From positions 1 through 64,000 of the forward strand of contig JAMPEU010000011.1 of the NCBI GenBank assembly GCA_023664865.1: a stretch of DNA of 64,000 bases. The letters are read 5' to 3'. This DNA is from Butyrivibrio sp. Its GTDB lineage: Bacteria > Bacillota > Clostridia > Lachnospirales > Lachnospiraceae. Position 1 is the stretch's first letter. Every line of letters begins with the position of its first letter. The notes below the pieces were generated by a model that worked only from the letters and a program-made list of their open reading frames with translations, did no database searches and was not told where the DNA came from. Made by a program: the position numbers and the translations under genes. Positions 1 to 63,645 of this stretch are shown piece by piece.

Positions 1-139
1 CTCATATGTTTTTGTGAGTGGTCCTTGGAAAACGCCGGTCCTTGGTGAAAAAGCTGTTTTTTAGCTTTTGAACCTAGTACCGCTGCGATTTTCCACGGAG
101 CGGGAGCGTGCCACTCATGAAAACATATGAGTTCATGCC
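1..139 (+). repeat. R1 structured repeat, copy 1 (cut by window edge)
   Basis: Member of a five-copy family (others at 18751, 29282, 42171, 63493). It forms one long hairpin: outer arms pair CTCATATG with CATATGAG, then GAGTGGT-type arms, an inner TGGAAAA/TTTTCCA stem, and an apical arm containing GGTCCTTGGTGA opposite GAACCTAGTACC. The 3' side holds GCGGGAGCG, where other copies have GCGAGAGCG. About 8 bases of the left arm lie outside the window. It sits just past the 3' end of ilvD. No reading frame of note. Confidence 0.9.
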
Positions 140-177
140 CCAGATAACTATGAATAGTAACACCAAATGTCTTTTAC

Positions 178-18750: not shown

Positions 18751-18916
18751 GTTGTACAATATATACAAAACAACGTAGGGCACGCTTTCGTTACGTTGCC
18801 AGATAATTTACGAAGTAAATTTTCTGTTGCGGTAAGCAGTACTAAGCTCGAAAATACCTCGCTAAGTACCGACGGCGGCATAATACCCTACTTATGTTTT
18901 GTATATATTGTACAAC
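18751..18916 (-). repeat. R1 structured repeat, copy 5 (divergent)
   Basis: On the minus strand this 166-base element has 22-base outer arms (GTTGTACAATATATACAAAA paired with its complement at the other end) and a GTAGGG/CCCTAC second stem. The apical arm CGGTACTTAGCGA opposite GAGCTTAGTACTG matches the core of the other R1 copies, including the U-U mismatch and tandem GA/AG. AACGAAAGCG replaces AGCGAGAGCG on the 3' side. An extra hairpin CAGAAAATTTAC-TTC-GTAAATT is inserted where others have TTTTCC. It lies about 70 bases ahead of metF. Confidence 0.82.
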
Positions 18917-24836: not shown

Positions 24837-25853
24837 TTACTCTTCTTCCCACGGTATCAGCGGATTTTCAATCTTTTTATCACGCAGCATCAGACTCCCC
24901 ACGGCTTCTGCCGCTGACTTTCCGTTAAACAGGACTTCATTCACCTGCTCGATAATGGGAAGCTGAACTTCATATTTTTGCGCAAGCCCCATCGCCGCTT
25001 TTGCAGAATACACGCCTTCCACTACCATCTTGACTTCCGCCATCGCCTCGTCCATGGTATAGCCTTTGCCTATCAGGATTCCGGCACGCCTGTTCCTTGA
25101 GTGCATGGACGCGCAGGTCACGATTAAATCACCGATGCCGGTAAGTCCGGTAAAAGTCTCCAATCTGCCGCCCATCGCCATTCCAAGCCTTGCAATCTCG
25201 GCTATTCCTCTTGTAATAAGCGCCGCCTTAGTATTATCGCCGTATCCGAGTCCGTCCGCTATTCCGGCTGCAAGCGCAACCACGTTCTTAAGCGCCGCGC
25301 CAAGCTCAATACCCAGCACGTCGGGGCTTATATAGACTCTGAACACTTTATTCATGAAAATATTCTGCAGATATTCCGCGGTTTTCTTTCTCTTAGCTCC
25401 CACTACTATGGTAGTAGGGATGCCCCTTCCGACTTCCTCAGCATGCGAAGGTCCCGATAATACCGCTACTTCCGCCTGCGGAATTTCTTCCTCAATAATC
25501 TGCGACAGGGTAAGCAGCGTATCTTCCTCAATTCCCTTTGCCACATTGACGATTATCTGCCCCTCTTTTACATAAGGCGCCATGCTCTTTGAAGTGTTTC
25601 TCGTATATGGAGAAGGCACGGCAAGCACCAGAACGTCTTTTCCCTTTACCGCGCTTTCCAAATCAGTTGTAAACTCCATATCGTCCGGCAGCTTCACGCC
25701 GGGAAGTTTATCCTTATGCTCATGCTCTGTCTTAAGCATTTCGATTTCTTTCTCAACTATCGACCACACAGTTATACTATGCCCGTTACCGTGAAGTAAA
25801 ACCGCCAACGCAGTCCCCCAGCTCCCTGCCCCAATTATACCTATATCCGCCAT
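24837..25853 (-). CDS. gpsA: NAD(P)-dependent glycerol-3-phosphate dehydrogenase
   Basis: About 338 residues. It reduces dihydroxyacetone phosphate to sn-glycerol 3-phosphate for phospholipid synthesis. The Rossmann motif IGAGSWGTALA, the VLAVPS stretch, NVAKGIEEDTL, SGPSHAEEV, catalytic lysine in ELGAALKNVVALAAG and TFTGLTGIGDLIVTC are all present. ATG at 25853 is preferred over 25865 because the GGAG at the upstream ATG is only one base away. plsY precedes it on the same strand, so substrate and acyltransferase are made together. Confidence 0.95.
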   Translation of the reverse strand: MADIGIIGAGSWGTALAVLLHGNGHSITVWSIVEKEIEMLKTEHEHKDKLPGVKLPDDMEFTTDLESAVKGKDVLVLAVPSPYTRNTSKSMAPYVKEGQIIVNVAKGIEEDTLLTLSQIIEEEIPQAEVAVLSGPSHAEEVGRGIPTTIVVGAKRKKTAEYLQNIFMNKVFRVYISPDVLGIELGAALKNVVALAAGIADGLGYGDNTKAALITRGIAEIARLGMAMGGRLETFTGLTGIGDLIVTCASMHSRNRRAGILIGKGYTMDEAMAEVKMVVEGVYSAKAAMGLAQKYEVQLPIIEQVNEVLFNGKSAAEAVGSLMLRDKKIENPLIPWEEE

Positions 25854-25889
25854 ACTAATACCCATACTCCTTTCATTTCACAAATTAAC

Positions 25890-25915
25890 GGCGACTTACC
25901 TCTTTTCAAGCATTG
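25890..25915 (-). repeat. R2 core remnant at the plsY stop codon
   Basis: GGCGACTTACCTCTTTTCAAGCATTG matches the R2 core at 35760-35785 in 24 of 26 positions. The outer stems are missing. The plsY stop (TGA) lies within the matched core, so the end of PlsY is read into the element. Confidence 0.7.
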
Positions 25916-26562
25916 TTATCTTCCTTTTTATGCGTCAAATACGTCTTACGCTCTTCCCCTTTAATCAGTCGCGCAATATTCTCCCGATGTTTATAGTACG
26001 CCATAACAGTTAATGCCGCTGCGATGGCATATAGTTCATAAAGATGCGCCTGGCTCATGCCAAACTTCCCCATCTGCCCCATAACGACTACTTCTATTAT
26101 GAATCCTATATAGACAAGCAGCGAACCAAGCGAAACATAGTGCGTCGTAAAGAAAATGCCGAAGAAAATAATCACGCCCATCGGAATAAAATATGGGTGG
26201 TATGAAAGAATAAGCCCTGCCGTCGCTGCAATTCCTTTTCCGCCCTTAAAGTTAAGGTAAAAAGGAAAATTATGTCCAAGAATCGCTCCCGCCGCGGCAT
26301 ACATTTTAAGCAGGTATATCATGTCCGGATGGCTTTTGCCAAATAAAATCCCTGTAAGGACAACGGCAAGTATGCACTTAATTATATCCCCGAAAAGCAC
26401 AATCAGCCCCGCCTTAGTGCCAAGCACGCGTAGCGTGTTTGTCGTCCCCGCATTATGGCTGCCATAGTCCCTTATATCTATTCCATGCAGTTTCCCGTAA
26501 ATATACGCGGTCTGGAACAAGCCGAACACATAACCGATTACCAAGCAAATAATACGTTCCAC
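25906..26562 (-). CDS. plsY: acyl-phosphate glycerol-3-phosphate acyltransferase
   Basis: A 218-residue integral membrane enzyme that transfers an acyl chain from acyl-phosphate to glycerol 3-phosphate, the first step of phosphatidate synthesis in most Gram-positives. Conserved loops are GLFQTAYIYGKL, DYGSHNAGTTNTLRVLG (motif 1 with catalytic Ser/His/Asn), GHNFPFYLNFKGGKGIAAT and a late membrane segment. The cytoplasmic tail is Lys/Glu/Asp-rich. The last residues and the stop are supplied by an R2-like repeat core. One base separates it from der. Confidence 0.95.
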   Translation of the reverse strand: MERIICLVIGYVFGLFQTAYIYGKLHGIDIRDYGSHNAGTTNTLRVLGTKAGLIVLFGDIIKCILAVVLTGILFGKSHPDMIYLLKMYAAAGAILGHNFPFYLNFKGGKGIAATAGLILSYHPYFIPMGVIIFFGIFFTTHYVSLGSLLVYIGFIIEVVVMGQMGKFGMSQAHLYELYAIAAALTVMAYYKHRENIARLIKGEERKTYLTHKKEDNNA

Positions 26563-26563
26563 C

Positions 26564-27901
26564 TTACTTTTCTCCTTTTCTTTCCCTTATTATAAATTTA
26601 AGCGGAGTTCCCCTAAATCCGAAAGCTGCCCTTATCTGATTTTCAATATATCTCGTATATGAAAAATGCATTAAATTTTTATCATTGACAAAGATTACAA
26701 ACGTCGGCGGCTTGACCGAAACCTGAGTAATGTAAAACAGTCTGAGCCTTCTTCCCTTATCCGACGGCGGCTGCTGCAATGCCACTGCCTCCGACATGAT
26801 TTCATTGAGGACTCCTGTAGATATACGCATAGCATGGTTCTCATATATGATGTCAATCAACTCGTACAGCTTAAACAACCGCTGTCCTGTCACCGCTGAA
26901 ATAAAAGTAATCTCGGCATAGGGCATGAAGGAAAGCACTTGTCTGATTTTCTGGGTAAATTGATCCACAGTCTTATTGTCCTTTTCAATCATATCCCACT
27001 TGTTGACGGCAATAATCGTCGCCTTGCCCCTGTCATGCGCAATCCCCGCTATCTTAGCGTCCTGCTCGGTAGCCCCTTCATTAGCGTCAATAATCAGGAT
27101 TACTATGTCAGCGCGTTCCACGGCGGAAACGGTACGGATAATCATATACCGCTCAAGTTCTTCTTTTATCTTGTTCTTGCGCCTTAAACCCGCCGTATCA
27201 ATAAAGACATATTCCTTTCCCTTGTAGGTAATTTCCGTATCCACGGCATCCCTCGTCGTTCCTGCAATATCTGATACAATCAGCCTGTTCTCGCCGATAA
27301 GCCTGTTGATGATAGACGATTTGCCGACATTTGGCTTGCCGACGATTGCCACCCTGATGCGCTCGTCTTCTTCTTCCTGCGCCGCCTCCATATCAAAATG
27401 CGAGGTGACTTCGTCAAGCAGTTCCCCAAATCCCAGCTTATTTACAGAAGAAATCGGAAAAGGCTCGCCGATTCCAAGCTGATAAAACTCATATACGTCA
27501 GCCATGTATTTATTAAAATCGTCAACCTTATTGACGGTAAGCACTACAGGCTTTTTTGAACGGCGCAGCATGTCTGCGACTTTGGAATCCGCATCCACAA
27601 GCCCCTGCTTTACATCCACCATAAAAATAATAACGTCCGCCGTATCAATGGCAATCTGCGCCTGCTCCCGCATCTGCGACAAGATTATGTCCTTGCTTTC
27701 CGGCTCAATTCCACCGGTATCAATCAAGGTAAAATTCATATCCAGCCATGTAATGTCTGCATATATCCTGTCTCTGGTAATGCCCGGCGTATCCTTTACA
27801 ATAGATATTTTTGCCTTCGCCAATGCGTTAAACAAGGTAGATTTACCTACATTAGGCCTTCCTACCACAGCCACGATTGGTCTGGATTTTTTCTTTCCCA
27901 T
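26564..27901 (-). CDS. der: ribosome biogenesis GTPase Der (EngA)
   Basis: About 445 residues. Two tandem GTPase domains are present: the first has GRPNVGKSTLFN, DTPGI and NKVD, the second GKPNVGKSSIIN, DTAGLRRKNK and NKWD. A C-terminal KH-like domain follows (RLRLFYITQVSVKPPTFVIFVN). It acts in 50S subunit assembly. The frame is open to a GTG at 27919 overlapping the upstream stop, but ATG at 27901 follows GGGGGA and gives the normal N-terminus. Confidence 0.96.
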   Translation of the reverse strand: MGKKKSRPIVAVVGRPNVGKSTLFNALAKAKISIVKDTPGITRDRIYADITWLDMNFTLIDTGGIEPESKDIILSQMREQAQIAIDTADVIIFMVDVKQGLVDADSKVADMLRRSKKPVVLTVNKVDDFNKYMADVYEFYQLGIGEPFPISSVNKLGFGELLDEVTSHFDMEAAQEEEDERIRVAIVGKPNVGKSSIINRLIGENRLIVSDIAGTTRDAVDTEITYKGKEYVFIDTAGLRRKNKIKEELERYMIIRTVSAVERADIVILIIDANEGATEQDAKIAGIAHDRGKATIIAVNKWDMIEKDNKTVDQFTQKIRQVLSFMPYAEITFISAVTGQRLFKLYELIDIIYENHAMRISTGVLNEIMSEAVALQQPPSDKGRRLRLFYITQVSVKPPTFVIFVNDKNLMHFSYTRYIENQIRAAFGFRGTPLKFIIRERKGEK

Positions 27902-27915
27902 AACGTCCCCCATTC

Positions 27916-29250
27916 TCACTCATACTTCTCATAATGTAATATAGACTCAACAAAGTCATGTCCGCTTGATTTTACAATATCTACCTTAACTTGTAAAGCT
28001 TTTTCCATCTCTGAAACGGTTATATCGTCCAGAAAATAATCTTCGCCGCTGCGCAGTACATTCTGCGGCAGCAAAAGCCTTTCCCCAAGTTTCTTATCTT
28101 TTAGCTGACTGATAATGTCCTGTCCTGTCAAAAGCCCCGATACCGTAATAAGCCTGCCGAAAAAATTATTGGTTATCGCATATACATGGATATCAAGCTG
28201 CGGAAAACGCTGCATCATCGTGTCTGCCATCTTCTTTATATAAGGATAGGCAAGCTGCCCTGTAGCTATAGACACTTCTCCGCCTTCATACTGCGTCTGC
28301 GCTCCACAGGAAAATTCCGCCATAGCCTCGTCAAACTCATTCAGCATAAGCCGCAGCATGCCTACGCCGTTCTCTAGCTGCAAGTAACCGTCATAACGCC
28401 CCTCTTCCGGCAGTTCTTCTCCCGCCATAATATACCATTCGTCGGAAGCATGTACAAAATGCGTGCCATGCTCCTTATAAATTTTTTCCTGCCACCTATG
28501 TATGCACTCCAGCACACAGACGGCGTCCTCCTTGGTAAAAGGCTCTAATTCAAACAGCCCTTCCCGATAATCCGTAAGCCCCACAGGCACTACCGACACG
28601 CTCTCAAGCTGCGGCATATATTCATATAAATCGGCAATGGAACGCTCCAGCTCTGCACCGTCGTTTATGCCCTTGCATAAAACAATCTGCCCATTCATCG
28701 TGATTCCGGCTTCGTAAAGCCTCTTCACATGCTTAAGCGCCTCTCCCGCGAAACGGTTATTCAGCATCCTGCACCTTAACTCAGGGTTAGTCGTATGGAA
28801 GGAAATGTTTATCGGCGACAGATGATACTTTATTATTCTCCCGATATCGTCATCGACCATATTAGTCAATGTAACATAATTCCCCTGTAAAAAGGATAAT
28901 CTCGAATCATCATCCTTGAAATACAGCGTATCCCGCATCCCCTTAGGCATCTGGTCGATAAAACAGAATATACATTTATTCCTGCACGAGCGGTACTCAT
29001 CCATAAGACCGTTTTCAAATTCCACGCCCAGCTCTTCGTCATATTCCTTATCAATTTCCAAAAGCCACTCTTCGCCGCCTTTCTTACGCACCAGAACTTC
29101 TATATATTCATCCTGAATCAGATACTGGTAGTCAAAAATATCCCTTATTTCATTATTATTAATCTTAAGAATAACGTCTCCTTCTTCTATCCCCATCTCC
29201 TGCGCAATCGAATCAGGGTATACGGTTTTAACTATATGCTGTACATTCAT
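27916..29250 (-). CDS. DUF512 radical-SAM protein with N-terminal PDZ-like domain
   Basis: A 444-residue protein. An N-terminal PDZ-like segment (about 5-65, YPDSIAQEMGIEEGDVILKI) is followed by a degenerate radical-SAM core with the CRNKCIFCFIDQMP cluster motif (about 87-100) and a C-terminal DUF512 domain (about 225-440). The family is conserved in Clostridia and usually sits beside der, as here; its reaction is not established. ATG with AAGGTGGAA upstream. R1 copy 2 lies between this gene and the divergent prs. Confidence 0.9.
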   Translation of the reverse strand: MNVQHIVKTVYPDSIAQEMGIEEGDVILKINNNEIRDIFDYQYLIQDEYIEVLVRKKGGEEWLLEIDKEYDEELGVEFENGLMDEYRSCRNKCIFCFIDQMPKGMRDTLYFKDDDSRLSFLQGNYVTLTNMVDDDIGRIIKYHLSPINISFHTTNPELRCRMLNNRFAGEALKHVKRLYEAGITMNGQIVLCKGINDGAELERSIADLYEYMPQLESVSVVPVGLTDYREGLFELEPFTKEDAVCVLECIHRWQEKIYKEHGTHFVHASDEWYIMAGEELPEEGRYDGYLQLENGVGMLRLMLNEFDEAMAEFSCGAQTQYEGGEVSIATGQLAYPYIKKMADTMMQRFPQLDIHVYAITNNFFGRLITVSGLLTGQDIISQLKDKKLGERLLLPQNVLRSGEDYFLDDITVSEMEKALQVKVDIVKSSGHDFVESILHYEKYE

Positions 29251-29281
29251 AAATCTATTTCCACCTTTTTGCTAATCTCTA

Positions 29282-29428
29282 GGCATGAACTCATATGTTT
29301 TCGTGAGTGGTCCTTGGAAAACGCCGGTCCTTGGTGAAAAAGCTGCTTTTTAGCTTTTGAACCTAGTACCGCTGCGATTTTCCACGGAGCGAGAGCGTAC
29401 CACTCAGGGAAACATATGAGTTCATGCC
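29282..29428 (+). repeat. R1 structured repeat, copy 2 (best-paired reference copy)
   Basis: A 147-base hairpin. The outer stem is 19 perfect pairs (GGCATGAACTCATATGTTT and complement); a short internal loop (TCG/GGG) and TGAGTGGT/ACCACTCA follow. The third stem is CCTTGGAAAACG with CG-A-TTTTCCACGG. The apical arm GGTCCTTGGTGA-AAAAGCT pairs with AGCTTTT-GAACCTAGTACC, leaving a U-U mismatch and tandem GA/AG. AGCGAGAGCG stays unpaired on the 3' side. Located between the divergent DUF512 gene and prs. Confidence 0.92.
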
Positions 29429-29434
29429 TTATGC

Positions 29435-29481
29435 ATCTGTAAATAGCAAACCCTATATAAAATTATGCACAATTTACAGAT
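29435..29481. promoter_or_regulatory. inverted repeat upstream of prs
   Basis: ATCTGTAAAT (29435-29444) and ATTTACAGAT (29472-29481) are exact inverted repeats 27 bases apart, about 40 bases ahead of the prs promoter. Could be an operator or a terminator remnant. The 353-base gap 29251-29603 otherwise holds R1 copy 2 and the prs promoter. Confidence 0.4.
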
Positions 29482-29521
29482 ATAAAGCAAGCCCAACCGT
29501 CTAAATTGTACACTAAATATC

Positions 29522-29551
29522 TTGACTACATACCTGTCAAAATGTTATAAA
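29522..29551 (+). promoter_or_regulatory. prs promoter
   Basis: TTGACT, 18 bases, TATAAA, about 50 bases ahead of the prs start codon. Confidence 0.65.
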
Positions 29552-29603
29552 ATAAGTGATATATATTTTTAGCAACTTGTGTTTTTACAGATAGGAGAAA
29601 ATT

Positions 29604-30797
29604 ATGCCTAACATACAAGAATTAGAAACATCCATGCCTGTTGCGCCTATAAAGATTCTGACTACGGACGCCGCGCTCCCGCTTACACGTTTAATTAACG
29701 GATATCTGGTTGAATTCAGGCAGCATCTGAACAACAGTTTCAAAAACGATCCTGCCTTTTACGGATATATGGAAGACAACTATCTTATCAAGGTAGACTG
29801 TCCTCGCTCCGGCAACGGCGAAGGCAAGGCGGTTCTCGATACTTCGGTAAGGGGAAAAGATATTTTTATACTTACCGACGTATGCAACCACAGCATAACC
29901 TATCAAATGAACGGTTTTACCAACCACATGTCTCCCGACGACCATTATCAGGATTTAAAGAGGATTATTTCCGCCATCAACGGAAAGGCGCACAGAATCA
30001 ATGTAATTATGCCCTTTTTGTATGAAGGCAGACAGCATAAAAGGAGCGGCAGGGAATCCCTTGACTGCGCTTATGCAATCGAAGAGCTTATGAATATGGG
30101 GGTTGCCAATTTCATTACTTTTGACGCACACGACCCAAGGGTGCAGAACTCCGTGCCGTTAAAAGGATTTGACAACTATACTCCGCACTATCAGTTCATG
30201 CGCGCGCTCCTTCATTCAGAGGGCGATTTAATAATAGATAAAGAACATACGATTGTAATAAGCCCGGACGAAGGCGCGCTCGACAGAGCCGTATATTTTG
30301 CCAACGTACTCGGCGTGGATACCGGCATGTTCTATAAACGCCGCGACTACTCCACTATCGTAAACGGTAAGAATCCGATAGTCGCTCATGAATTTTTAGG
30401 AGATAATATCGACGGCAAAGACGTAATAATTATAGACGATATGATTTCTTCCGGCGGCAGCATGATTGACACAGCCAAGCAGTTAAAGAAAAGAAATGCC
30501 AAGCGCGTCTTTATCTGCGCTACCTTTGGTCTTTTTACAGACGGTTTGTCTGCGTTTGACGAAGCTTATGAAAAATGCTACTTTGACCGCATAATCACTA
30601 CCAATTTATGCTATCAGCCCCCTGAGTTAAAGGATAAACCTTATTATCAGGAGGCCGATATGAGTAAGTTTATTGCATCGATTATTAATTTTATGAATCA
30701 TGATGCTTCCATGTCGAATATTTATACGCCTACGGACAAGATTCATAATATTCTTGCAAGATACAATAATCGTGAAGAAGACGCTTTGGATAATTAA
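29604..30797 (+). CDS. prs: ribose-phosphate pyrophosphokinase, long form
   Basis: A 397-residue enzyme making PRPP from ribose 5-phosphate and ATP. It has the flexible-loop and ribose-binding features YEGRQHKRSGRESLDCAYAIEEL and the PRPP loop VIIIDDMISSGGSMIDTA. It is about 80 residues longer than the common 315-residue form, with extra N- and C-terminal segments; a long variant like this occurs in Clostridia. ATG after ATAGGAG. Its stop codon overlaps that of the convergent kinase gene. Confidence 0.92.
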   Translation: MPNIQELETSMPVAPIKILTTDAALPLTRLINGYLVEFRQHLNNSFKNDPAFYGYMEDNYLIKVDCPRSGNGEGKAVLDTSVRGKDIFILTDVCNHSITYQMNGFTNHMSPDDHYQDLKRIISAINGKAHRINVIMPFLYEGRQHKRSGRESLDCAYAIEELMNMGVANFITFDAHDPRVQNSVPLKGFDNYTPHYQFMRALLHSEGDLIIDKEHTIVISPDEGALDRAVYFANVLGVDTGMFYKRRDYSTIVNGKNPIVAHEFLGDNIDGKDVIIIDDMISSGGSMIDTAKQLKKRNAKRVFICATFGLFTDGLSAFDEAYEKCYFDRIITTNLCYQPPELKDKPYYQEADMSKFIASIINFMNHDASMSNIYTPTDKIHNILARYNNREEDALDN

Positions 30798-33526
30798 ATA
30801 AGCGGGAAGGCTATAATCACTTTGAACAAATCACCGTCTAGGCGGATTTCAAAAGTGCCGTTGAGTGCTTCGGTTAAATTCTTGGCAATCGAAAGGCCAA
30901 GCCCGCTGCCTTCCGTCGTTCTGGATTCGTCACCCCTTATGAATCTTTCAGTCAGTTCTTCCGGATTGCAGTTAAGTTCACTGGCTGAAATATTCTTTAA
31001 GGATATTTCAATCCAGGCTTTTCCTGCAGCGTCTTTATTCTTTATCTCTTCTGCCGTGACATAAACCCTTGTACCTTCTAACGCATATTTATAGATATTG
31101 TTAAACAGATTTTCCATAATGCGCCAGATTCTTCTGCTGTCCGCCTCTATTACTACATTAGAAGCGCTTATGTTCATAACTATATTTAAGTTTTTCTCCT
31201 CAAATTTCTCCGAAAACTCTCCAACAGTCTGATTCAGCAGCTCCGTCAAATTGATTCTTTCAAAACTCAGGCTGATATTGCCCGAAGATATCTTGCTCGC
31301 CTCTACCAAATCGTCGGTAAGCTGTTTCAGCCTCTGCGACTTCTCATCAAGTATCTTAATATATCCGTTTACACGCTCGTTGTCTATATCCTCACGCTTA
31401 ATCAAATCCACGTAATTGATAATAGATGTAAGCGGCGTCTTGATATCATGCGATACGTTGGTAATCAGCTCAGTCTTCGTCCTTTCGTCTTTCATACTGT
31501 TCTCAACCGCAGTTTTGATGCCGTTGCCAATACTGTTTACAGATTTTGCCAACGCCGTATTATATCCGTGTACCTTCTCCGGCTCTACCTGATGCGAGAA
31601 ATCCCCGTCTGCTATTTTTTCAATAATATTTACAATGTCCTGCCTCTCCTTAACATCACGGTAGAGAATCATTCCGATTACCACGTCCACAACAAGCATT
31701 ATAAATATTACCAAAAGCATCCCCATCGAGCGAAAAGCTACAATTGCCATAAACGCCATAAAAATATTAAAAATCAGGAACAAGAGATAAGGCACGCACG
31801 TCCTTACCGCTATATTGCTGTGTGAATATAACTCCGATGCCACACTCACGCATTTTCCTACAATACGATTAATAAAGCTGTTCTTCCATAATGTTTTCGC
31901 CTTTATCCTTCTTACAAGACTGTAATAGAAGTACAATAACACTATATCCGACACAAATACTGTCACGCCAAAGCCAATCCTGAACCATGTAGTATACAGG
32001 AAATCATAAGAAACTGCGTCCAAGCCCAGAACAAACGCCGCTGCTATTACTACGCCGGAAACCACTCCCATAACAAGCGCCACTTCTGTCGGTATCTTGT
32101 CAAAGCCTGTCAGATGGATGCTTACATTGCCGCCTTCATCAACATGCCGCCCTATAGTAATAGTCAGGCGTATGAAGATAATCAGGTACAGGATAATCGC
32201 CAAAACTGCAATTATCAGCCACTTATATATGTTAGGAGCATAATGTTGAAATCCGTCATATCCTTCTGCAAGAGCGTCATTAGCCGCATAAGAACCATCT
32301 ACCCCAATCCATAACTTGATATCCTCCGGATAGGCATAACTATACTTTTTTAAAATCTGCCGAACCCATTCTTCATCTATATTTGAGTTAGTCTCGTATA
32401 ACATTCTGTCAGGGTCATAATAAATGTACCGGCCCACCTTTCCATTCATTTTTCCGGCAAAGACTTCGCTAAAAAATGCCTCTTTATCTATACGGTTTTC
32501 TTCCGTCGTACCGTCTGTGGAGTCATCTATCATATTAGTAAAATATTCCGTATATCCGTTTACAGTTCTTTCAAGGCAATAGCGAATATTGGTATTATTT
32601 CCTGCATAATACTCGCTGAATTTCAAATATTCATCATAATTATAACTAAGATCCTGCATAGCCATAGCAACATTATCGCATAGCTGTATATAACTTCCCC
32701 ATTTAGACGTGAAATCTTCAATATTCCTGCCTTCAATAGTCTTATAGCGATTAGATAAAATATCATAATACTGAGCTGATGCGTCTTCATCTGATTTCTG
32801 TTCCGCCAGTCCACTTGTGTCTATGCTGATTTCATAATTATTTTCATAACCTGAATATGAGGACGTCGTGCCATCATAACCTGTTGGACCGCCATATATA
32901 AGCGAATTGCCGGATACATCAATCTTATATGCGTCTGCCGGCACCTTCATATAGTAATAATCGGCAGGATAGTCCTGGGGAATATCACGGTTTAGCGTAG
33001 TTACTATGGTTATCGGGCTTAAGAAATTCTCCAATTCCTTACTGTCCGAACGATAGGTGGAATACTCAAGACCATAATTCTGCCATTTTAATAAATCCTT
33101 CAGATAATATCTTGCCGTCAGATAAGTTTCAGACATGGCGCTTGTACGGTTATTGTACGCGGTTACATCTATGACCTTCTTACCGTCGAATTCACCGTCT
33201 GTTTCCATCTGGCTTCTGATAACACAAAATCTCATGATATCCGAAATAGCATTTGCATATACGGAATTAAAAATATCCGACTCCTCATAGCTTTCTTTAT
33301 CGCTTACATTCCACAGTGAATATGTATAACGACTGTTCCCATATAAGTCATGCACAGTAATGATTGAACCGGAAAGCACGGCTAATAGGGTGACCGCTGC
33401 AACGGTAATCAGCACATGCTGCAAAAACTGCAAAAAACCCTGCAGCCCGCGTTTATTTTTATTCTTGGTTTTCTTTTCATTTACTTCTACCTTTTCATCA
33501 ACTTCTGTATTTGAATTTTCGCTCAT
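30794..33526 (-). CDS. large membrane sensor histidine kinase (VanS-like)
   Basis: A 910-residue kinase. It has one transmembrane helix near residues 37-58, a large extracellular domain of about 370 residues, a second cluster of membrane helices (about 435-655), a HAMP-like stretch, the phospho-acceptor motif TNVSHDIKTPLTSIINY, N box NLFNNIYKYA and G box EGSGLGLSIAKNL. It is translated from 13 bases after its regulator. The extracellular sensor domain is not one I recognise. Its 3' end overlaps the prs stop codon by 3 bases, leaving no room for a conventional terminator. Confidence 0.9.
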   Translation of the reverse strand: MSENSNTEVDEKVEVNEKKTKNKNKRGLQGFLQFLQHVLITVAAVTLLAVLSGSIITVHDLYGNSRYTYSLWNVSDKESYEESDIFNSVYANAISDIMRFCVIRSQMETDGEFDGKKVIDVTAYNNRTSAMSETYLTARYYLKDLLKWQNYGLEYSTYRSDSKELENFLSPITIVTTLNRDIPQDYPADYYYMKVPADAYKIDVSGNSLIYGGPTGYDGTTSSYSGYENNYEISIDTSGLAEQKSDEDASAQYYDILSNRYKTIEGRNIEDFTSKWGSYIQLCDNVAMAMQDLSYNYDEYLKFSEYYAGNNTNIRYCLERTVNGYTEYFTNMIDDSTDGTTEENRIDKEAFFSEVFAGKMNGKVGRYIYYDPDRMLYETNSNIDEEWVRQILKKYSYAYPEDIKLWIGVDGSYAANDALAEGYDGFQHYAPNIYKWLIIAVLAIILYLIIFIRLTITIGRHVDEGGNVSIHLTGFDKIPTEVALVMGVVSGVVIAAAFVLGLDAVSYDFLYTTWFRIGFGVTVFVSDIVLLYFYYSLVRRIKAKTLWKNSFINRIVGKCVSVASELYSHSNIAVRTCVPYLLFLIFNIFMAFMAIVAFRSMGMLLVIFIMLVVDVVIGMILYRDVKERQDIVNIIEKIADGDFSHQVEPEKVHGYNTALAKSVNSIGNGIKTAVENSMKDERTKTELITNVSHDIKTPLTSIINYVDLIKREDIDNERVNGYIKILDEKSQRLKQLTDDLVEASKISSGNISLSFERINLTELLNQTVGEFSEKFEEKNLNIVMNISASNVVIEADSRRIWRIMENLFNNIYKYALEGTRVYVTAEEIKNKDAAGKAWIEISLKNISASELNCNPEELTERFIRGDESRTTEGSGLGLSIAKNLTEALNGTFEIRLDGDLFKVIIAFPLI

Positions 33527-33539
33527 TGTAATCCCCTTT

Positions 33540-34241
33540 CTACTGTTTTTCGATTTTGTACCCTACCCCCCAAACAACCTTCAAATAGCGCGGCTCCTTG
33601 GGATTAATCTCAATCTTCTCCCTGATATGCCTGATATGTACGGATACGGTATTGTCCGCCCCCACTGCTTCCTCATTCCAGATGCTCTCATATATCTGCG
33701 AGATTGAGAACACCCTGCCGCAGTTTCGCACAAGCAAAAGCAGAATATTATACTCTATAGGTGTCAGTTTCACGATTTCACCGTCCACAGTGACCTCTTT
33801 CTTATCATCGTCAATACACAAACCGCCCACCTGAAATAATGCGTTATTATCGACATTGAGATTGCCAAGCATCGTATACCGCCTTAGGTTCGATTTTACC
33901 CTTGCCACAAGCTCTAACGGATTAAAAGGTTTCGTCACATAATCATCAGCCCCGATATTTAATCCCAGAATCTTATCATTGTCTTCTGATTTCGCCGAGA
34001 TAATGATAATCGGTATACTGGAATATTCCCTGATTTTTAAGGTAGCGCGGATACCGTCAAGCTTAGGCATCATCACGTCTATTATCAGAAGATGAATATC
34101 CGTTTCCTTTAAAACCTTTATCGCCTGTTCCCCGTCATACGCCTTGAATATCTGATAACCTTCCTGAATCAGATAAATCTCTATTGCATCAACTATTTCT
34201 TTATCATCATCGCATATCAGAATGTTAGCCATGTCTTCCAC
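33540..34241 (-). CDS. OmpR/VanR-family response regulator
   Basis: A 233-residue regulator with receiver (phospho-acceptor Asp in HLLIIDVMMPKLDG, conserved Lys in YVTKPFNPLEL) and a winged-helix DNA-binding domain (LTPIEYNILLLLVRNCGRVFS ... NTVSVHIRHIREKIE ... VWGVGYKIE). Partner of the downstream kinase. TTAAGAAAACCTTAAAA just upstream resembles the direct repeats many OmpR-type regulators use for self-control; this is weak evidence. Confidence 0.93.
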   Translation of the reverse strand: MEDMANILICDDDKEIVDAIEIYLIQEGYQIFKAYDGEQAIKVLKETDIHLLIIDVMMPKLDGIRATLKIREYSSIPIIIISAKSEDNDKILGLNIGADDYVTKPFNPLELVARVKSNLRRYTMLGNLNVDNNALFQVGGLCIDDDKKEVTVDGEIVKLTPIEYNILLLLVRNCGRVFSISQIYESIWNEEAVGADNTVSVHIRHIREKIEINPKEPRYLKVVWGVGYKIEKQ

Positions 34242-34303
34242 CTCCCAAGGATATTACAACATATAAAAGCAAAGAAATTCATACGAACTTTTTTAAGGTT
34301 TTC

Positions 34304-35176
34304 TTAATATTTTAAACCCATAAACGCACCCAGATTGCCGCGTTTCCCCTTACTCGCCCTATGTGAAAAAAGGTATTCGGGATTGCAGCATGTGCATATA
34401 TCAGTCACCTGAATCTTATCGGGCGCTATCCCCGCCTCTGTAAGCACAATTTCGTTAGCCCGCCACAAATCCAGCAGAAACTTGCCATTTCCCTTATCTG
34501 TGAGGATTTCTTCCCTCTGCCCCGGCTTGCAGAATTCTTTTGCAAAAGCCTCCGCCACGTCCTCACTCACCTCATAGCAATCGCGGCAGATGGACGGTCC
34601 TATCGCCGCCGTCAAATCCTCTGGCTTTGTGCCGTATTCCCTTGCCATCGCTTCTACCATGCGAAGCCCCATTCTTGCCACAGTCCCACGCCAGCCGGAA
34701 TGTGCAAGCCCTATTGCCTTATGCTTTGCATCAACAAAAAAAAGCGGTACACAATCCGCATAAAAAGTTGCCAGCACTATATTTTTTTCATCGGTAATCA
34801 AACCGTCAATATCCGTGTAATCCTTCGGATATAAAATTCCTTTGCCGCCATCTTTACGGCTTACCGTCCTGATATTGGTAGTATGAGTCTGGTCTGAGCA
34901 GACTATATCAGATACCTGGCAATCCAGCGCCTTCGCAATCCTTCGATAATTCTCATCGACTGCCGCCTTTTCATCTCCCCTTGTATAGCTTAGATTCATG
35001 GAAGAAAATATCCCTTCGCTCACTCCGCCAAGCCTTGTTGTAAACATATGCTTCACAATTCCTGTATCCGTAAGAATGGGAAAAGTCAGATATTCCATAT
35101 CGCCGTCTACATTCTGCTTCATTTGCAGTTTAGAAGGCTTTCTTTTTATTTTCACCAAATCATATACCCCCATCAC
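34304..35176 (-). CDS. pgeF: multicopper-polyphenol-oxidase-like (laccase-domain) protein
   Basis: A 290-residue protein of the YfiH/LACC1/PgeF family with metal-site motifs VCSDQTHT, FYADCVPLFF and LAHSGWRGTVARMG, and CTCCNPEYLFSHRASKGKRGNLGAF at the C-terminus. Family members act as purine nucleoside phosphorylases/deaminases or remove misincorporated L-Ser from peptidoglycan precursors. The start is uncertain: ATG ATG at 35176 lies at the end of a 30-base tandem repeat with no clear ribosome site; GTG at about 35155 (KIKRKPS) has GGGGG upstream. Confidence 0.88.
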   Translation of the reverse strand: MMGVYDLVKIKRKPSKLQMKQNVDGDMEYLTFPILTDTGIVKHMFTTRLGGVSEGIFSSMNLSYTRGDEKAAVDENYRRIAKALDCQVSDIVCSDQTHTTNIRTVSRKDGGKGILYPKDYTDIDGLITDEKNIVLATFYADCVPLFFVDAKHKAIGLAHSGWRGTVARMGLRMVEAMAREYGTKPEDLTAAIGPSICRDCYEVSEDVAEAFAKEFCKPGQREEILTDKGNGKFLLDLWRANEIVLTEAGIAPDKIQVTDICTCCNPEYLFSHRASKGKRGNLGAFMGLKY

Positions 35177-35264
35177 ATATATTCAAACATACTCTTCATT
35201 CATTACACATATTCAAACATACTCTTCATTCACTACACATATTCAAACGCATTCTTTATCCACT
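35175..35264. repeat. three 30-bp tandem repeats covering the yraN 3' end
   Basis: Units 35175-35204, 35205-35234 and 35235-35264 share CACATATTCAAAC and CTTCATTCACT-like halves. The third unit encodes the last residues of YraN (WIKNAFEYV); the other two lie between its stop and pgeF. Probably slippage duplication of the gene end. Confidence 0.85.
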
Positions 35265-35586
35265 GTATGCTGTCTCCGTCAATCGCCACTACGTCGAAGC
35301 GAATCGGCATATCCGAAGGACATCTGTGTATCATTCTGTAATAATCCGCCACCCTGCATATTTTCTTCTGTTTAAAAAATCCTACCGCTTCAAGCGCACT
35401 GCCTTTATCCGAACCGCTCTTCCTATACTTGACCTCAAAAAACACCAGATACTCTCCATCATACCCAATAACATCTATCTCACCACTCCTGCACCTGAAA
35501 TTCCGCTCCTTTATCCTGACTCCATTCTGTTCCAGATACCTGCAGGCTACCTCTTCCTTCCTCGCACCTATCTCCCTCGTATTCAA
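35233..35586 (-). CDS. YraN family (UPF0102) nuclease-like protein
   Basis: A 117-residue protein with a restriction-endonuclease-like core: GARKEEVACRYLEQNGVRIKERNF, then the acidic residue in GEIDVIGYDG and FEVKYRKS (E-x-K), followed by KQKKICRVADYYR. The family often sits with rnhB, as nearby here, and is thought to act on nucleic acid; the role is unproven. Its final residues lie within the first unit of a 30-base tandem repeat. Confidence 0.92.
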   Translation of the reverse strand: MNTREIGARKEEVACRYLEQNGVRIKERNFRCRSGEIDVIGYDGEYLVFFEVKYRKSGSDKGSALEAVGFFKQKKICRVADYYRMIHRCPSDMPIRFDVVAIDGDSIQWIKNAFEYV

Positions 35587-35612
35587 ATCTTTTCCATTCC
35601 CCTACTTTCTTT

Positions 35613-35723
35613 ACACCAGCCAACTACCAATCTCATTACTTACCTTCATAATACCATACAACTGCCAATCTCCATTCCTTACCTTCTATAAATACCAGCC
35701 AACTGCCAATCTCTATTTATTCC
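35613..35723. repeat. three imperfect 38-41 bp tandem repeats
   Basis: Units begin at about 35613, 35651 and 35692, each with ACCA(G/T)(C/A)CAACT(A/G)CCAATCTC followed by an ATTACTTACCTTC-like half. They fill the gap between yraN and R2 copy B. Non-coding. Confidence 0.75.
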
Positions 35724-35731
35724 AATACCCA

Positions 35732-35817
35732 GAGTTTAGTCTAAATGAATAAAATAAGGGGCGACTTACCGCTTTTCAGGCATTGGAGCCCCGTTTTTAT
35801 TCATTTAGACTAAACTC
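35732..35817 (-). repeat. R2 structured repeat, copy B
   Basis: An 86-base hairpin in reverse orientation to copy A. The core (35755-35790 region, GGGGCGACTTACCGCTTTTC onward) is identical to copy A. The 23-base arms start GAGTTTAGTCTAAATGAAT, differ from copy A at several positions and still pair perfectly. Confidence 0.88.
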
Positions 35818-35894
35818 GTGACAGCAAAACTAACTGTCTAAACTCGTGACAGCAAATCATACTTACTAAACTCGTGACAGCAAATCATATTTAC
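35811..35894. repeat. three 28-bp tandem repeats at the edge of R2 copy B
   Basis: Units at 35811-35838, 35839-35866 and 35867-35894, each starting TAAACTCGTGACAGCAAA. The first begins inside the right arm of R2 copy B, the last covers the stop codon of the flhB-like gene. The same 18 bases flank R2 copy A with one change. Confidence 0.88.
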
Positions 35895-36178
35895 ATTCCC
35901 ATCTTCGCCTTAATCTTATCCATCGCATCAACAAACACCAAAATCTCCGCCACTACCTCATACAGTTCCGGGGGAATCGTCTCTCCGATATCCAACCTGG
36001 ACAAAGTATCGGCAAGCTTATCGTCCCTATGCACGGGAACATCCGCTTCCTTCGCCTTCTCGATAATTTTCTCCGCCAGAGCGCCTTTGCCGGAAGCTAT
36101 GACTCTCGGCGCTTCGTCATTAGGATCATACTCTAAGGCGATTGCCTGTTTTATTTTATTTTTCTTTTCTTCCGCCAC
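35891..36178 (-). CDS. FlhB C-terminal-domain homologue (YlqH/FlhX-like)
   Basis: A 95-residue protein matching the cytoplasmic domain of the flagellar/type III export switch FlhB (IALEYDPNDEAPRVIASGKG ... AEKIIEKAKEADVPVHRDDKLADTLSRLDIGETIP ... VVAEILVFV). It lacks the membrane domain and the NPTH self-cleavage site. It follows the FliK-like gene, as ylqG-ylqH do in Bacillus. GTG start after GAAGGAAGG. A truncated FlhB can support export in some systems; no flagellar genes are in the window. Confidence 0.9.
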   Translation of the reverse strand: MAEEKKNKIKQAIALEYDPNDEAPRVIASGKGALAEKIIEKAKEADVPVHRDDKLADTLSRLDIGETIPPELYEVVAEILVFVDAMDKIKAKMGM

Positions 36179-36219
36179 AGTGATTCCTTCCTTCTTTATA
36201 TAACTCTCTGACTCTTAAT

Positions 36220-38028
36220 CTATGCGCGCATATCGAACGACGTCTTGCTAAGCACAGAAATATTCTTATTCTGCTCCAATATTTTCTGCATAATATTGGT
36301 TTCTTCCTCTTCTTCATCCTTAAGTTTAAAGTTAGCGCTCATGGAATAACCCCTTTTCTCCAATCTCTCATTTAAAATATGAATATGTTCCGCAATCAGG
36401 TCAAGGGAGTCCTCGTCTCTCAGCGTAAAATTAGTGCTTACCTTATTCTGGCTTGGCTGCATGGTGATATATACATCCATAGGTCCTAAGTTTTCCATGT
36501 CAAGATGCAGAAGGGCGCTTATATTGCCGTCTTTTCTCGCCAGACTTTTCTTATTGGTATATACGTATAAATCGCCGTGCGCCTGATTTCCACTCATCAT
36601 AAGCGGAAGCTGGACATAGGGGAAAAGATGGTTCATCTGATTGATAAAATCCACGTTGTTCTGCAGATTTTGCACACTTTTCGCCCCAACGCTGTCAGCC
36701 TTTCCTGCCATCTGAAAAGCTTCGCTTATTCTTGCCGTCTGCTCCCTTATCCTTTCATAGAGCTGCTCCACTTTCTCTTTCAAATCAGTTTCGTCTGCTC
36801 CTATCGTCCAATCCTTCGCCATCTGCGTATGGAGAAGATTTTGAAAAGCCCTGCTCCCGAAAAGTTCCTTAACATGCTCATGCAAACGGCTCCCCACTAT
36901 ATCGGGCTGATTTGAAAGCAGCTCGTTTATCTGTGAAAGCGTCTCCTTTGGTGAAAGATTTCCCTTTCCTACTTGCTCTGCAGTCTCTTCATTTACACCA
37001 AGCTTCCTTAACATGCCCTCTAACTCTTTCCACGATTCCTGTGAAAGTATGGGTTTGGACGTTTCTGTCTTCTCTTGCCCTATAATGCCTTTTTCTTCCG
37101 AGATTACAACTTTTCCTTCTGAAATGGTAGAGTTATCCGTCCCCGCCGCATCATTAATAAGCGCTCCCTGTAAAAGCGTTTTATCCGCATTAATATTATC
37201 TGACTGCATACTTTCAGACAAAGTATTAACGGCAGCATTTATCTGCGCATTTTCCCCCGCCTGTGTTTCCACAATCGTATTCTGCGCCGCCTGTGTATCT
37301 ACATTCAAGGCTTCCGCATTTCCCCCGCCGACAAACGCCTTAATAAGCTGGCTATAGAACATGACAGCATCCGCTTCTTTACCTTCTGCCAACAGTTCAT
37401 TATATGCCTGTGGTATTTCCTGCATAAGCTGATTTGTACTCTGCAAAATCTGATGTTCATTATTCTTATACAATTCAAACTGTTCTATATTAAGTTCCGA
37501 TATGGGCAGCCCCAGCCTGACCATCTGCATAATAGACGCCGGATTGGCATTCGGAAAATCCACAAGCTGCCTGTTCACATAAGCTATGGAATCCCTATCT
37601 ATCGGCAGCCCCTCCTGCATCATGTCCGACACCATTTTTATATTCTCCGCCGTCTGTGAGAGTCCTGCCGCCGACAACGCCTTAAGAATGGTAGCCTCAT
37701 TTGCCATATTGGCATAAAGCGGCGTCAGCGAAAGCAGCGAGCCGTTATTGGTCTTTACCTCAAAGCTCATGCTCTGTCCAAGCGCGATATTCAAATCCCG
37801 TTCCAGCCTGGCGGTAAGCACGACATCCGGCTCGATGGCTATTTGCACGGTATTGCCGTCTTTAGCGACCACCTCGCCCTGAATGGTCTGACCGGGCGCA
37901 ACGTTTCGCATCTCATTCATCGCCCTATAGTTTTTATCCTCAGCTGAAACCGCAGCAGCCGTCTGCCGCCCTGAGTCTGCCTGACTTATATTACCGGTTA
38001 TTGCTTTAAAAACATCTCCGAGATTCAA
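36220..38028 (-). CDS. YlqG/FliK-like protein (hook-length-control-type C-terminus)
   Basis: About 602 residues. The start is placed at TTG 38028 because GGAGG stands 7 bases ahead of it, giving an N-terminus (M)NLGDVFKAITGN; ATG 38046 overlaps the rnhB stop but has no ribosome site. An OB-like segment (GQTIQGEVVAKDGNTVQIAI) is followed by a long Ala/Gln/Asn-rich middle and a C-terminal domain like FliK (MENLGPMDVYITMQ ... VSTNFTLRDEDSLDLI ... HILNERLEKRGYSM). Partner of the FlhB-like gene downstream. Function outside flagella unknown. Confidence 0.82.
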   Translation of the reverse strand: MNLGDVFKAITGNISQADSGRQTAAAVSAEDKNYRAMNEMRNVAPGQTIQGEVVAKDGNTVQIAIEPDVVLTARLERDLNIALGQSMSFEVKTNNGSLLSLTPLYANMANEATILKALSAAGLSQTAENIKMVSDMMQEGLPIDRDSIAYVNRQLVDFPNANPASIMQMVRLGLPISELNIEQFELYKNNEHQILQSTNQLMQEIPQAYNELLAEGKEADAVMFYSQLIKAFVGGGNAEALNVDTQAAQNTIVETQAGENAQINAAVNTLSESMQSDNINADKTLLQGALINDAAGTDNSTISEGKVVISEEKGIIGQEKTETSKPILSQESWKELEGMLRKLGVNEETAEQVGKGNLSPKETLSQINELLSNQPDIVGSRLHEHVKELFGSRAFQNLLHTQMAKDWTIGADETDLKEKVEQLYERIREQTARISEAFQMAGKADSVGAKSVQNLQNNVDFINQMNHLFPYVQLPLMMSGNQAHGDLYVYTNKKSLARKDGNISALLHLDMENLGPMDVYITMQPSQNKVSTNFTLRDEDSLDLIAEHIHILNERLEKRGYSMSANFKLKDEEEEETNIMQKILEQNKNISVLSKTSFDMRA

Positions 38029-38045
38029 ATAATGACCTCCATTCA

Positions 38046-38804
38046 TTAAACAAAATGTGTTATAAAGGATTTCCTGTGAATCGGACATGGACCGTATTTT
38101 TCAAGCACCTCTATATGCTCTTTTGAACCATATCCTTTATTGGACGCAAAGCCGTATTCGGGAAAAACACTGTCGTACTGTACCATCAGACGGTCCCTTG
38201 TCACCTTTGCCACGATGCTTGCCGCGCCGATGGATATGCTCTTAGCGTCTCCCTTAATAATGCCTATCTGCTTTATATCCACCTGCGGTATGGTAACGGC
38301 GTCATTTAGAAGTAAATCCGGTTTAACCTTAAGCTTAGATATAGCCTCGCGCATTGCTTCATACGTCGCCTGAAGAATGTTTATCTCGTCAATCCGTTCC
38401 GGAGTATTATAGCCGATGCCAACCGCGACCGCCTTATCCATTATCACATCATAAAGCTCCTCTCTCTTTTTTTCGGAGAGTTTCTTTGAATCATTGATAT
38501 ATAAAATATCACAACTTTTTGGCAAAATAACGGCTCCCGCCACTACCGGCCCTGCAAGCGGTCCTCTGCCCACCTCGTCGATGCCGCATATATATGAATA
38601 CTCATCGTATTTCTTCTCAAAAAATTTTAGCTGCTCAGTTCTTTCCAGCTCACGCCTATATGCCTCAAGCCGCTTTCTCGCCGCATTGACAGCCTGTATG
38701 ACTCCGCCTCTTTCATCATTCTCATAAACAGATAATAATTCAGGCAGCTTCATGTAATCCGCTGCCTGTAAATTCTTCTTGATTTCCTGAATTGTTTCCG
38801 CCAT
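38046..38804 (-). CDS. rnhB: ribonuclease HII
   Basis: A 252-residue enzyme that removes RNA from RNA-DNA hybrids. The catalytic motif GIDEVGRGPLAGPVVAGA (Asp-Glu), the DSKKLSEKKRE stretch, LLNDAVTIPQV (Asp) and SIAAASIVAKVTRDRLM-like SIGAASIVAKVTRD (final Asp) are present, and an N-terminal extension of about 70 residues is usual in Firmicutes. It lies in the sip-rbgA-rnhB-ylqG run. Confidence 0.96.
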   Translation of the reverse strand: MAETIQEIKKNLQAADYMKLPELLSVYENDERGGVIQAVNAARKRLEAYRRELERTEQLKFFEKKYDEYSYICGIDEVGRGPLAGPVVAGAVILPKSCDILYINDSKKLSEKKREELYDVIMDKAVAVGIGYNTPERIDEINILQATYEAMREAISKLKVKPDLLLNDAVTIPQVDIKQIGIIKGDAKSISIGAASIVAKVTRDRLMVQYDSVFPEYGFASNKGYGSKEHIEVLEKYGPCPIHRKSFITHFV

Positions 38805-38824
38805 TTGTACTTCCCCTATAAAAT

Positions 38825-39355
38825 TTACCTGTGCTTTATAAATCCGAACTTGTCAAACGGCCATATCCTAAGCCATGCCCTGCCGACAATAATGTCTCTT
38901 TTTACATTCCCGACCACTGGATCGCGGCTATCGGAACTGTTGTTTCTATTATCTCCCATAACAAAATATTCATCATCACCCAGAATAATCGGCACAAACG
39001 CCCGCCCCGGATTTTCAATGACTTCCTTGCCGTAGCCTTCTTCAAGAACTTCACCGTCAATATAAATGTTGCCTTCTTCATCAATATAAATCGTCTCGCC
39101 GGGCAAACCTATAATGCGCTTGATTAAAAACTTCTCCCCGAAGGGAAAAACAATGATATCGTAACGCTCCGGCTCCTTGAATTTATATGTAATTTTATCC
39201 ACAATCAGGTTATCCTGATCGCTGAGTTTCGGTTCCATAGAGCTCCCGGTAACTTCCGTGCGCTGCCCCACAAAATGAATTACCAGATAAGACAGGCATA
39301 GCACAACCAAAAGATACAGACTTGTACTCAATATTTCACTCAAAACCTTCTTCAT
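38825..39355 (-). CDS. lepB: type I signal peptidase (second copy)
   Basis: A 176-residue membrane serine protease that removes Sec signal peptides. It has one N-terminal transmembrane helix (about 8-28), the nucleophile in VTGSSMEPKL, general base Lys in FLIKRIIGLPGETI, and the C-terminal GDNRNNSSDSRDPVVGNV box. Its start overlaps the rbgA stop by 4 bases. A close paralogue lies on the other side of rbgA. Confidence 0.95.
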   Translation of the reverse strand: MKKVLSEILSTSLYLLVVLCLSYLVIHFVGQRTEVTGSSMEPKLSDQDNLIVDKITYKFKEPERYDIIVFPFGEKFLIKRIIGLPGETIYIDEEGNIYIDGEVLEEGYGKEVIENPGRAFVPIILGDDEYFVMGDNRNNSSDSRDPVVGNVKRDIIVGRAWLRIWPFDKFGFIKHR

Positions 39356-40221: not shown

Positions 40222-40246
40222 ATAACGCCTTCCTCCTTATGCCAAC

Positions 40247-40834: not shown

Positions 40835-40916
40835 ACCTATACCCCTTCAACGTACTCATAATCTAAAACAGCTACCTCAAATTGCTTTAAGGTAACTGCC
40901 ATGATTAACTCCTATT

Positions 40917-41258: not shown

Positions 41259-41376
41259 ATTAATCTTCCGCCTCCTTTAAACATGAGATGTTCTTAATAC
41301 TATCTGTAACAGAGGACCATCTTTTCACAACATTAATAATTTATCATATTATAGGGATAATTGCAAGCACTAATTT

Positions 41377-42147: not shown

Positions 42148-42170
42148 TTATGTCCTCCATATAGTCTATA

Positions 42171-42324
42171 AGCGGCATGGACACATATGTTTCCGTGAGC
42201 AGCCCTTGGAAAACGTCGGTACTTAGTGAAAAAGCCTGTTTTATGGCTTTTGAACTTAGTACCGCTACGATTTTCCACGGAGCGAGAGCGTGCTGCTTAT
42301 GGAAACATATGTGTTCATGCCGCT
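42171..42324 (+). repeat. R1 structured repeat, copy 3 (inside rimM-trmD)
   Basis: A 154-base copy with outer stem AGCGGCATG/CATGCCGCT extended beyond the other copies, and GAGCAGC/GCTGCTT where copies 1-2 have GAGTGGT/ACCACTC. The third stem has ACGT/ACG-A where others have ACGC/GCG-A, and the apical arm uses GGTACTTAGTGA with GAACTTAGTACC and GCC/GGC. It fills almost the whole gap between rimM and trmD. Confidence 0.92.
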
Positions 42325-63492: not shown

Positions 63493-63645
63493 TGCGTCAT
63501 GTACTCATATGTTTCCTCTTGAGGTCCTTGGGAAACGCCGGTCCTTGGTGAAAAAGCTGCTTTTTAGCTTTTGAACCTAGTACCGCTGCGCTTTCCCACG
63601 GAGCGAGAGCGTACCTCAAGTGGAAGCATATGAGTACATGACGCA
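63493..63645 (+). repeat. R1 structured repeat, copy 4 (EPS leader)
   Basis: A 153-base copy. Outer arms TGCGTCATGTACTCATATG and complement differ from other copies but still pair. TTGAGGT/ACCTCAA replaces GAGTGGT/ACCACTC, and TTGGGAAA/TTTCCCA replaces TTGGAAAA/TTTTCCA. The apical arm is as in copy 2. It occupies over half of the gap between the LoaP-like gene and the first EPS glycosyltransferase. Confidence 0.92.

What the first reader, a model, noticed from the sequence alone, without database searches (positions are those of the whole stretch)
29282..29428. R1: a five-copy intergenic hairpin family with compensatory changes around a fixed tandem-GA core
Copies at 1-139, 18751-18916, 29282-29428, 42171-42324 and 63493-63645. 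Seen directly: stem segments swap as pairs between copies (GAGTGGT/ACCACTC, GAGCAGC/GCTGCTT, TTGAGGT/ACCTCAA; TTGGAAAA/TTTTCCA and TTGGGAAA/TTTCCCA; CGC/GCG and CGT/ACG; AGT/ACT and GGT/ACC; GCT/AGC and GCC/GGC). The apical arm keeps one U-U mismatch and a 5'-GA/3'-AG tandem in every copy, and most copies keep GCGAGAGCG on the 3' side (GCGGGAGCG in copy 1, AACGAAAGCG in copy 5). Paired change with fixed non-canonical spots points to selection on a folded RNA or single-stranded DNA. I know of no named family that fits.
Basis: partly seen in the sequence, partly recalled or inferred. Interest (0 to 1): 0.88.

Follow-up and report, generated by a model that had tools for sequence, protein, structure and literature searches.

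The report
Mobile hairpin with conserved RNA core
Five look-alike hairpins in this bacterial DNA belong to a jumping element found at well over a hundred places in its genome, whose middle keeps a precise RNA-like fold in many related bacteria while its transposon-like ends keep changing.

Summary
Family level: 60 of 150 genomes, 59 of 149 genera. The element is a miniature transposon, not a fixed RNA gene: intact copies have inverted-repeat ends and 8-bp target duplications, copy 4 is missing from six of six syntenic relatives, and in two relatives IS66-family transposons share its ends. Yet the ~100-nt core keeps one fold across genera: 29 of 31 pairs show double-sided compensated changes in 51 sequences from 49 genomes, and the side hairpin has a GNRA loop in 51 of 51. 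G.U exceeds A.C 59 to 7 (own genome) and 67 to 26 (cross-genus), fixing the strand. No Rfam family matches. Corrections: the tandem GA is common, not fixed (41 of 51); and much stem-swapping between copies is replacement of whole interiors, sometimes inverted, at one locus. Most likely an IS66-type MITE carrying a selected structured-RNA core. Transcription and function of that RNA are not shown.

The parts
1..161 (+). copy 1 (subfamily A), left end cut by the contig end; core 9-123; right terminal repeat CTATGAATAGTAAC 148-161
18751..18916 (-). copy 2 (subfamily B), arms GTTGTACAATATATACAAAACA, extra hairpin inserted in the core; core match 18768-18898
29282..29428 (+). copy 3 (subfamily A), the finding; core 29298-29412; the orthologous place in G020 holds an element of another stem type
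29325..29371 (+). apical arm of copy 3: U.U mismatch 29332/29364, tandem GA 29336-29337/29359-29360
   Evidence: cross-genus 49/51 and 41/51
29372..29373 (+). CU bulge of copy 3 (CU in 42 of 51 sequences)
29389..29396 (+). side hairpin of copy 3, GC-GAGA-GC (GNRA loop)
42171..42324 (+). copy 4 (subfamily A); core 42190-42305; absent in six of six syntenic relatives
63493..63645 (+). copy 5 (subfamily A); core 63512-63626

Best explanation
R1 is a high-copy, non-autonomous miniature transposon (MITE), found almost only in one bacterial family (Clostridia, probably Lachnospiraceae; the name is my inference). Its outer ends are inverted repeats that an IS66-family transposase supplied in trans recognises, and it inserts with an 8-bp target duplication. 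Between the arms it carries a ~100-nt core that is selected as a folded RNA: a long stem, a three-way junction, a side hairpin with a GNRA loop, and an apical arm with a U.U mismatch and usually a tandem GA. Shown: ends, duplications, an empty site, IS66 ends shared in two genomes, core conservation, covariation, strand asymmetry, exchange of interiors between copies. Inferred: that IS66 moves it (no IS66 gene was found in the own genome, so there it may be immobile now); that the selected molecule is RNA rather than single-stranded DNA; that the core acts when transcribed, most likely in cis on the transcripts it lands in (stability or processing), which is the weakest step. Arms of different copies are homologous in both orientations, so recombination between copies can swap and invert cores and keep arms matched.
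For: 8-bp duplication peak for both end types: flank identity 0.475 (20 copies) and 0.462 (23 copies) against 0.317 and 0.306 in mismatched pairs. In G022, 5 of 6 R1-bearing elements with both ends printed have 8 of 8 matching flank bases and the sixth 7 of 8; in the own genome 4 of 12 distinct paired elements printed are exact. Copy 4 absent in 6 of 6 syntenic relatives. An IS66 element of G111 has 23-bp perfect ends; R1 loci of the same genome match them at 24, 23, 21, 21 and 16 of 25 against 14-16 in seven control loci; G022 R1 ends match its IS66 ends at 16-20 of 22 over six loci (no control run). Core, 51 sequences: 91.6% of cells paired, 29 of 31 pairs with double-sided change; GNRA 51 of 51. 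G.U against A.C: 59 to 7 (own genome) and 67 to 26 (cross-genus) in unfitted alignments; 176 to 51 and 75 to 20 in model-fitted ones. At 14 loci shared with G020 interiors are often swapped; at the 12 without inverted core 65 pairs changed on both sides against 11.8 expected, 59 still paired.
Against: No IS66 gene in G000, G020 or G156 (2 of 5 genomes positive; G000 is 96.6% complete). The IS66 copies with matching ends show no clear duplication of their own. Flank identity is also raised at 3 bp (0.45 and 0.41), and at 7 bp for T2 (0.398 against 0.313). Subfamily B has other ends and its duplication was not tested. One G111 R1 locus matches the IS66 end no better than controls (16 of 25). Subfamily A cores run against both neighbouring co-directional genes more often than with them (53 to 27, p 0.005), B the other way (13 to 5, p 0.10), so simple read-through would often make the other strand. 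In one search, 60 pairs changed on one side only, 32 of them broken. No expression data.
Confidence: 0.72

Rival explanations
1. The folded molecule under selection is single-stranded DNA: a hairpin transposition or replication intermediate recognised by a protein; core inversion would be a flip-flop product.
For: Very long matched arms; core inverted at 2 of 14 loci shared with G020; G.T is also tolerated better than A.C in DNA (recalled).
Against: GNRA in 51 of 51 with N and R free follows an RNA loop rule (recalled); 8-bp duplications point to a transposase acting on double strands (inference); other interiors with the same ends lack the core, so the core is not needed for movement.
Confidence: 0.17
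2. No selection on a fold: a palindromic MITE whose arms stay matched by hairpin-templated repair and conversion between copies.
For: Interiors are exchanged between copies at shared loci; arms of some species pair over tens of bases.
Against: Such repair should erase the bulge, U.U mismatch and side hairpin, which persist across genera; wobble asymmetry; the core aligns across genera, the arms do not.
Confidence: 0.1
3. A cis-regulatory RNA (riboswitch-like) kept at particular genes.
For: Subfamily B often lies just before start codons, sense (13 of 18 co-directional cases).
Against: At least 150 places in one genome, copy 4 missing from six relatives, both orientations in subfamily A. Identity of the neighbour genes was not compared.
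Confidence: 0.06

Closest known systems
bcr1 (and bcr1-bcr18) repeats of the Bacillus cereus group
   Same: Intergenic, folded repeats; bcr1-bcr3 called MITE-like and often part of transcripts (PMC3446304, passages seen); bcr1 size 147-167 in a table of PMC2267715 (passages seen)
   Different: No sequence comparison was made; bcr1 is called specific to one species group (title in a reference list); an 8-bp IS66-type end or a core kept across many genera is not mentioned in the passages I saw
IS66-family insertion sequences
   Same: Ends shared in G111 and G022; 8-bp duplication (IS66 value recalled)
   Different: No coding gene, long self-complementary arms, structured core; several unrelated interiors use the same ends
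REP/BIME/REPIN elements
   Same: Abundant, intergenic, palindromic repeats
   Different: 20-40 bp with GTAG/CGTC tags (title and start of abstract of PMC3733652 in listings), tyrosine transposases (title of PMC2817692); here ~190 nt with 8-bp duplications
Correia/NEMIS, ERIC, RUP, Efa-1 type repeats
   Same: Recalled as folded MITE-like repeats (Efa-1 appears in a table passage of PMC2267715)
   Different: Not compared by sequence here

Membership tests
MITE (non-autonomous DNA transposon) | terminal inverted repeats | tested here: met
MITE (non-autonomous DNA transposon) | target-site duplication of fixed length | tested here: met
   8 bp; 5 of 6 exact in G022; many own-genome copies have decayed flanks
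MITE (non-autonomous DNA transposon) | insertion polymorphism / empty sites | tested here: met
   copy 4, 6 of 6 relatives; other window copies not settled (copy 3 locus occupied in G020)
MITE (non-autonomous DNA transposon) | no transposase gene inside | tested here: met
   elements of ~190-230 nt
IS66-mobilised element | ends shared with an IS66 element of the same genome | tested here: met
   G111 up to 24 of 25 against controls 14-16; G022 16-20 of 22
IS66-mobilised element | IS66 transposase present in the own genome | tested here: not met
   0 matches in G000 and G020; so IS66 mobility is claimed for the element family, not for the own genome today
IS66-mobilised element | transposition by IS66 shown | not testable with these tools
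   needs an assay
structured non-coding RNA family | covariation above controls | tested here: met
   (structure predicted on the same alignment)
structured non-coding RNA family | match to a named Rfam family | tested here: not met
   (one miRNA hit at E 0.21, 25.5 bits against a gathering score of 200)
structured non-coding RNA family | transcription | not testable with these tools
   no expression data
REP/BIME | 20-40 bp palindromes with GTAG/CGTC tag and tyrosine transposase | tested here: not met
   size; tag and transposase not searched
bcr1 | bcr1 sequence match | not tested
   only paper passages seen

The most novel reading that the evidence does not exclude
The core is itself the selfish unit: a mobile RNA module, older than its carriers, that has repeatedly changed transposon ends and arms while its three-way junction with a GNRA side hairpin (perhaps docking into the apical arm) stayed fixed, and that spreads both by transposition and by overwriting resident hairpins in either orientation. 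Its RNA may have an active role, such as binding a host protein or catalysis.
Probability: 0.25. Interest if true: 0.88.

Novelty: new variant of a known kind. Interest (0 to 1): 0.68.

Why it matters
Bacterial MITEs are mostly seen as decaying transposon ends (recalled). Here the inside is recognisable in 59 of 149 genera searched while the ends are not, which implies a function for the folded core. It is abundant, has no match in Rfam 15, and now has a covariance model, so what a mobile RNA does for itself or its host becomes directly testable by RNA-seq, probing and simple mutants.

Tried and rejected
Plasmid and phage collections searched with copy 3: no match. A 15-base core pattern hit 53 viral stretches, but model R2 matched none of them at E 0.01: read as chance hits. 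A hand-written structure for A6 was out of register and is disregarded (it did not beat shuffles on two of five measures); the RNAalifold structure was used. A 5-kb span in G022 was first taken as one transposon; it holds an IS4-like gene and an IS66 gene, and only the IS66 part has close matching ends. Of ten IS66 loci ends like those of R1 on both sides were seen in two (L281, L284). An autonomous element with GTAACAGTTCAGCC ends was not found in the cut listing and not looked for further. Considered and dropped without a test: integron attC sites (because of the 8-bp duplications) and a kink-turn (no 3-nt bulge beside the tandem GA). Papers: five searches (listings and starts of abstracts seen) and passages of two papers; nothing I saw describes this element, which does not prove that it is not in print.

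Rows dropped and choices: antisense or overlapping model hits (133 of 150 and 42 of 46 rows kept); one search used 43 of 147 rows (both ends at 10 of 14 or better); one search used 124 A-type and 19 B-type places with a simple longest-ORF gene caller; A6 holds 51 sequences from 49 genomes (21 genomes of the own genus, 28 of other genera; G000 and G022 twice), chosen from best matches, some same-genus loci left out (L091, L094, L102, L105, L106, L108, L111-L113); all were retrieved by model R1. One search queried 137 copies against 42 held G020 loci only; 16 places were aligned, two of them (L189) only in part; one search counted 14 and totalled 12 (two inverted cores left out).

Full report
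Observation. Four lie on the + strand (subfamily A); 18751-18916 lies on the - strand (subfamily B).

Full element. Aligning copies with flanks shows that the 147-nt hairpin sits inside a longer palindrome of about 190 nt ending GTTACTATTCACAG...CTGTGAATAGTAAC (T1) or GTAACAGTTCAGCC...GGCTGAACTGTTAC (T2). Flank identity outside these ends peaks at 8 bp for both types (0.475 of 20 copies and 0.462 of 23 copies against 0.317 and 0.306 for mismatched pairs). It is also raised at 3 bp (0.45 and 0.41) and for T2 at 7 bp (0.398). Exact 8-bp repeats flank 4 of 12 distinct paired elements and 5 of 6 R1-bearing elements in the relative G022. Forms with internal deletions, 69-71 and 37 nt long, exist.

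Empty site. Window 25000-44900 is syntenic in six same-genus genomes. Copy 4 is absent from all six. Copy 3 has an element at the same place in G020, but of a different stem type. The contig lengths of G020 are those of MAG JAMPHY01, 'Clostridiales bacterium isolate NALB_7961_5'.

Who moves it. G022 has 94 T1-like ends at up to one mismatch, and an IS66-family gene lies between two of them (PF03050, E 1e-14; NCBIfam IS66 at 138 bits, below its cut-off of 180). In G111 an IS66 element has 23-bp perfect ends; R1 loci of that genome match them at 24, 23, 21, 21 and 16 of 25, against 14-16 in seven control loci from other genomes; G022 R1 ends match its IS66 ends at 16-20 of 22 over six loci, without a control. 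Against this, IS66 was found in 2 of 5 genomes searched and not in the own one, and the IS66 copies have no clear duplication of their own. Unrelated interiors share the same ends, so the core is not required for movement.

The core is conserved, the ends are not. With R1, 34 of 37 same-genus genomes and 0 of 24 others had matches; in a family-level draw 60 of 150 genomes, 59 of 149 genera. With R2 a phylum draw gave 5 of 398, one of them (G569) outside the family, and an order draw 13 of 196, all 13 in the family. The tools give no family name; Lachnospiraceae is my inference. Outer arms differ between genera while the core stays alignable.

Fold. On an unfitted MAFFT alignment of 51 sequences from 49 genomes, 29 of 31 pairs change on both sides, 91.6% of cells pair, and 332 cells carry double-sided compensated changes against 101 in shuffles and at most 100 in slid controls. 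The structure was predicted from the same alignment and the sequences were retrieved with a model that holds the fold; both favour it. The side hairpin loop is GNRA in 51 of 51 (GAGA 22, GAAA 16, GGGA 4, GGAA 3, GCAA 3, GCGA 3) and in 125 of 130 own-genome cores; a U.U mismatch stands in 49 of 51, tandem GA in 41 of 51, a CU bulge in 42 of 51. G.U outnumbers A.C 59 to 7 (own genome) and 67 to 26 (cross-genus) in unfitted alignments, 176 to 51 and 75 to 20 in fitted ones, so the GNRA strand is the selected one. No Rfam family was found.

How the covariation arises. At 14 loci shared with G020 and aligned over both flanks (two more only in part) the flanks match but the interior often does not: the core is inverted at two, the apex type is swapped at several, the stem type at three, and one is unchanged. 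At the 12 without inversion, 65 pairs changed on both sides against 11.8 expected under independence and 59 of these still pair; 60 pairs changed on one side, 32 of them broken. I read this as exchange of whole interiors between copies, arms serving as homology in both orientations. So some of what looked like compensatory mutation in the window is subfamily replacement; the cross-genus signal is not explained that way alone.

Position. Subfamily A copies lie close to stop codons. Between co-directional genes the core strand runs against the genes in 53 cases and with them in 27 (p 0.005); subfamily B runs with them in 13 and against in 5 (p 0.10), often just before a start codon. Gene calls were a simple longest-ORF method, and neighbour identities were not compared.

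Reading. The element is a MITE, of IS66 type in at least two genomes, whose core is selected as a folded strand, most likely RNA. Function is open; a cis effect on transcripts is my best guess and unproven. The nearest published kind that I saw described is bcr1 of the Bacillus cereus group (passages).

Noticed in passing
window 5986-6084, 25882-25915, 35730-35828: A second dispersed hairpin repeat, ~99 nt with 23-bp perfect arms; nine further places in G020 match window ~35714-35856 in the listing.
   Followed up: partly
window 48955-49096 and 51125-51271: Two near-identical intergenic stretches of ~142 nt (96-97%).
   Followed up: no
window 35171-35260: Three tandem copies of a 30-nt unit.
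   Followed up: no
L036 (194 nt), L236/L246 (145 nt), L238-L241 (67-144 nt): Unrelated interiors bounded by the same kind of ends as R1: several MITE kinds share one set of ends.
   Followed up: partly
L042, L046, L187:1501, L214:12430; L057, L198, L204: Core variants with an extra hairpin (GACCACT...AGTGGTC) or a longer insert in the core.
   Followed up: no
L121, L142: Exact core matches on scaffolds binned as Muribaculaceae from the same isolate series as G020; possibly mis-binned scaffolds.
   Followed up: no
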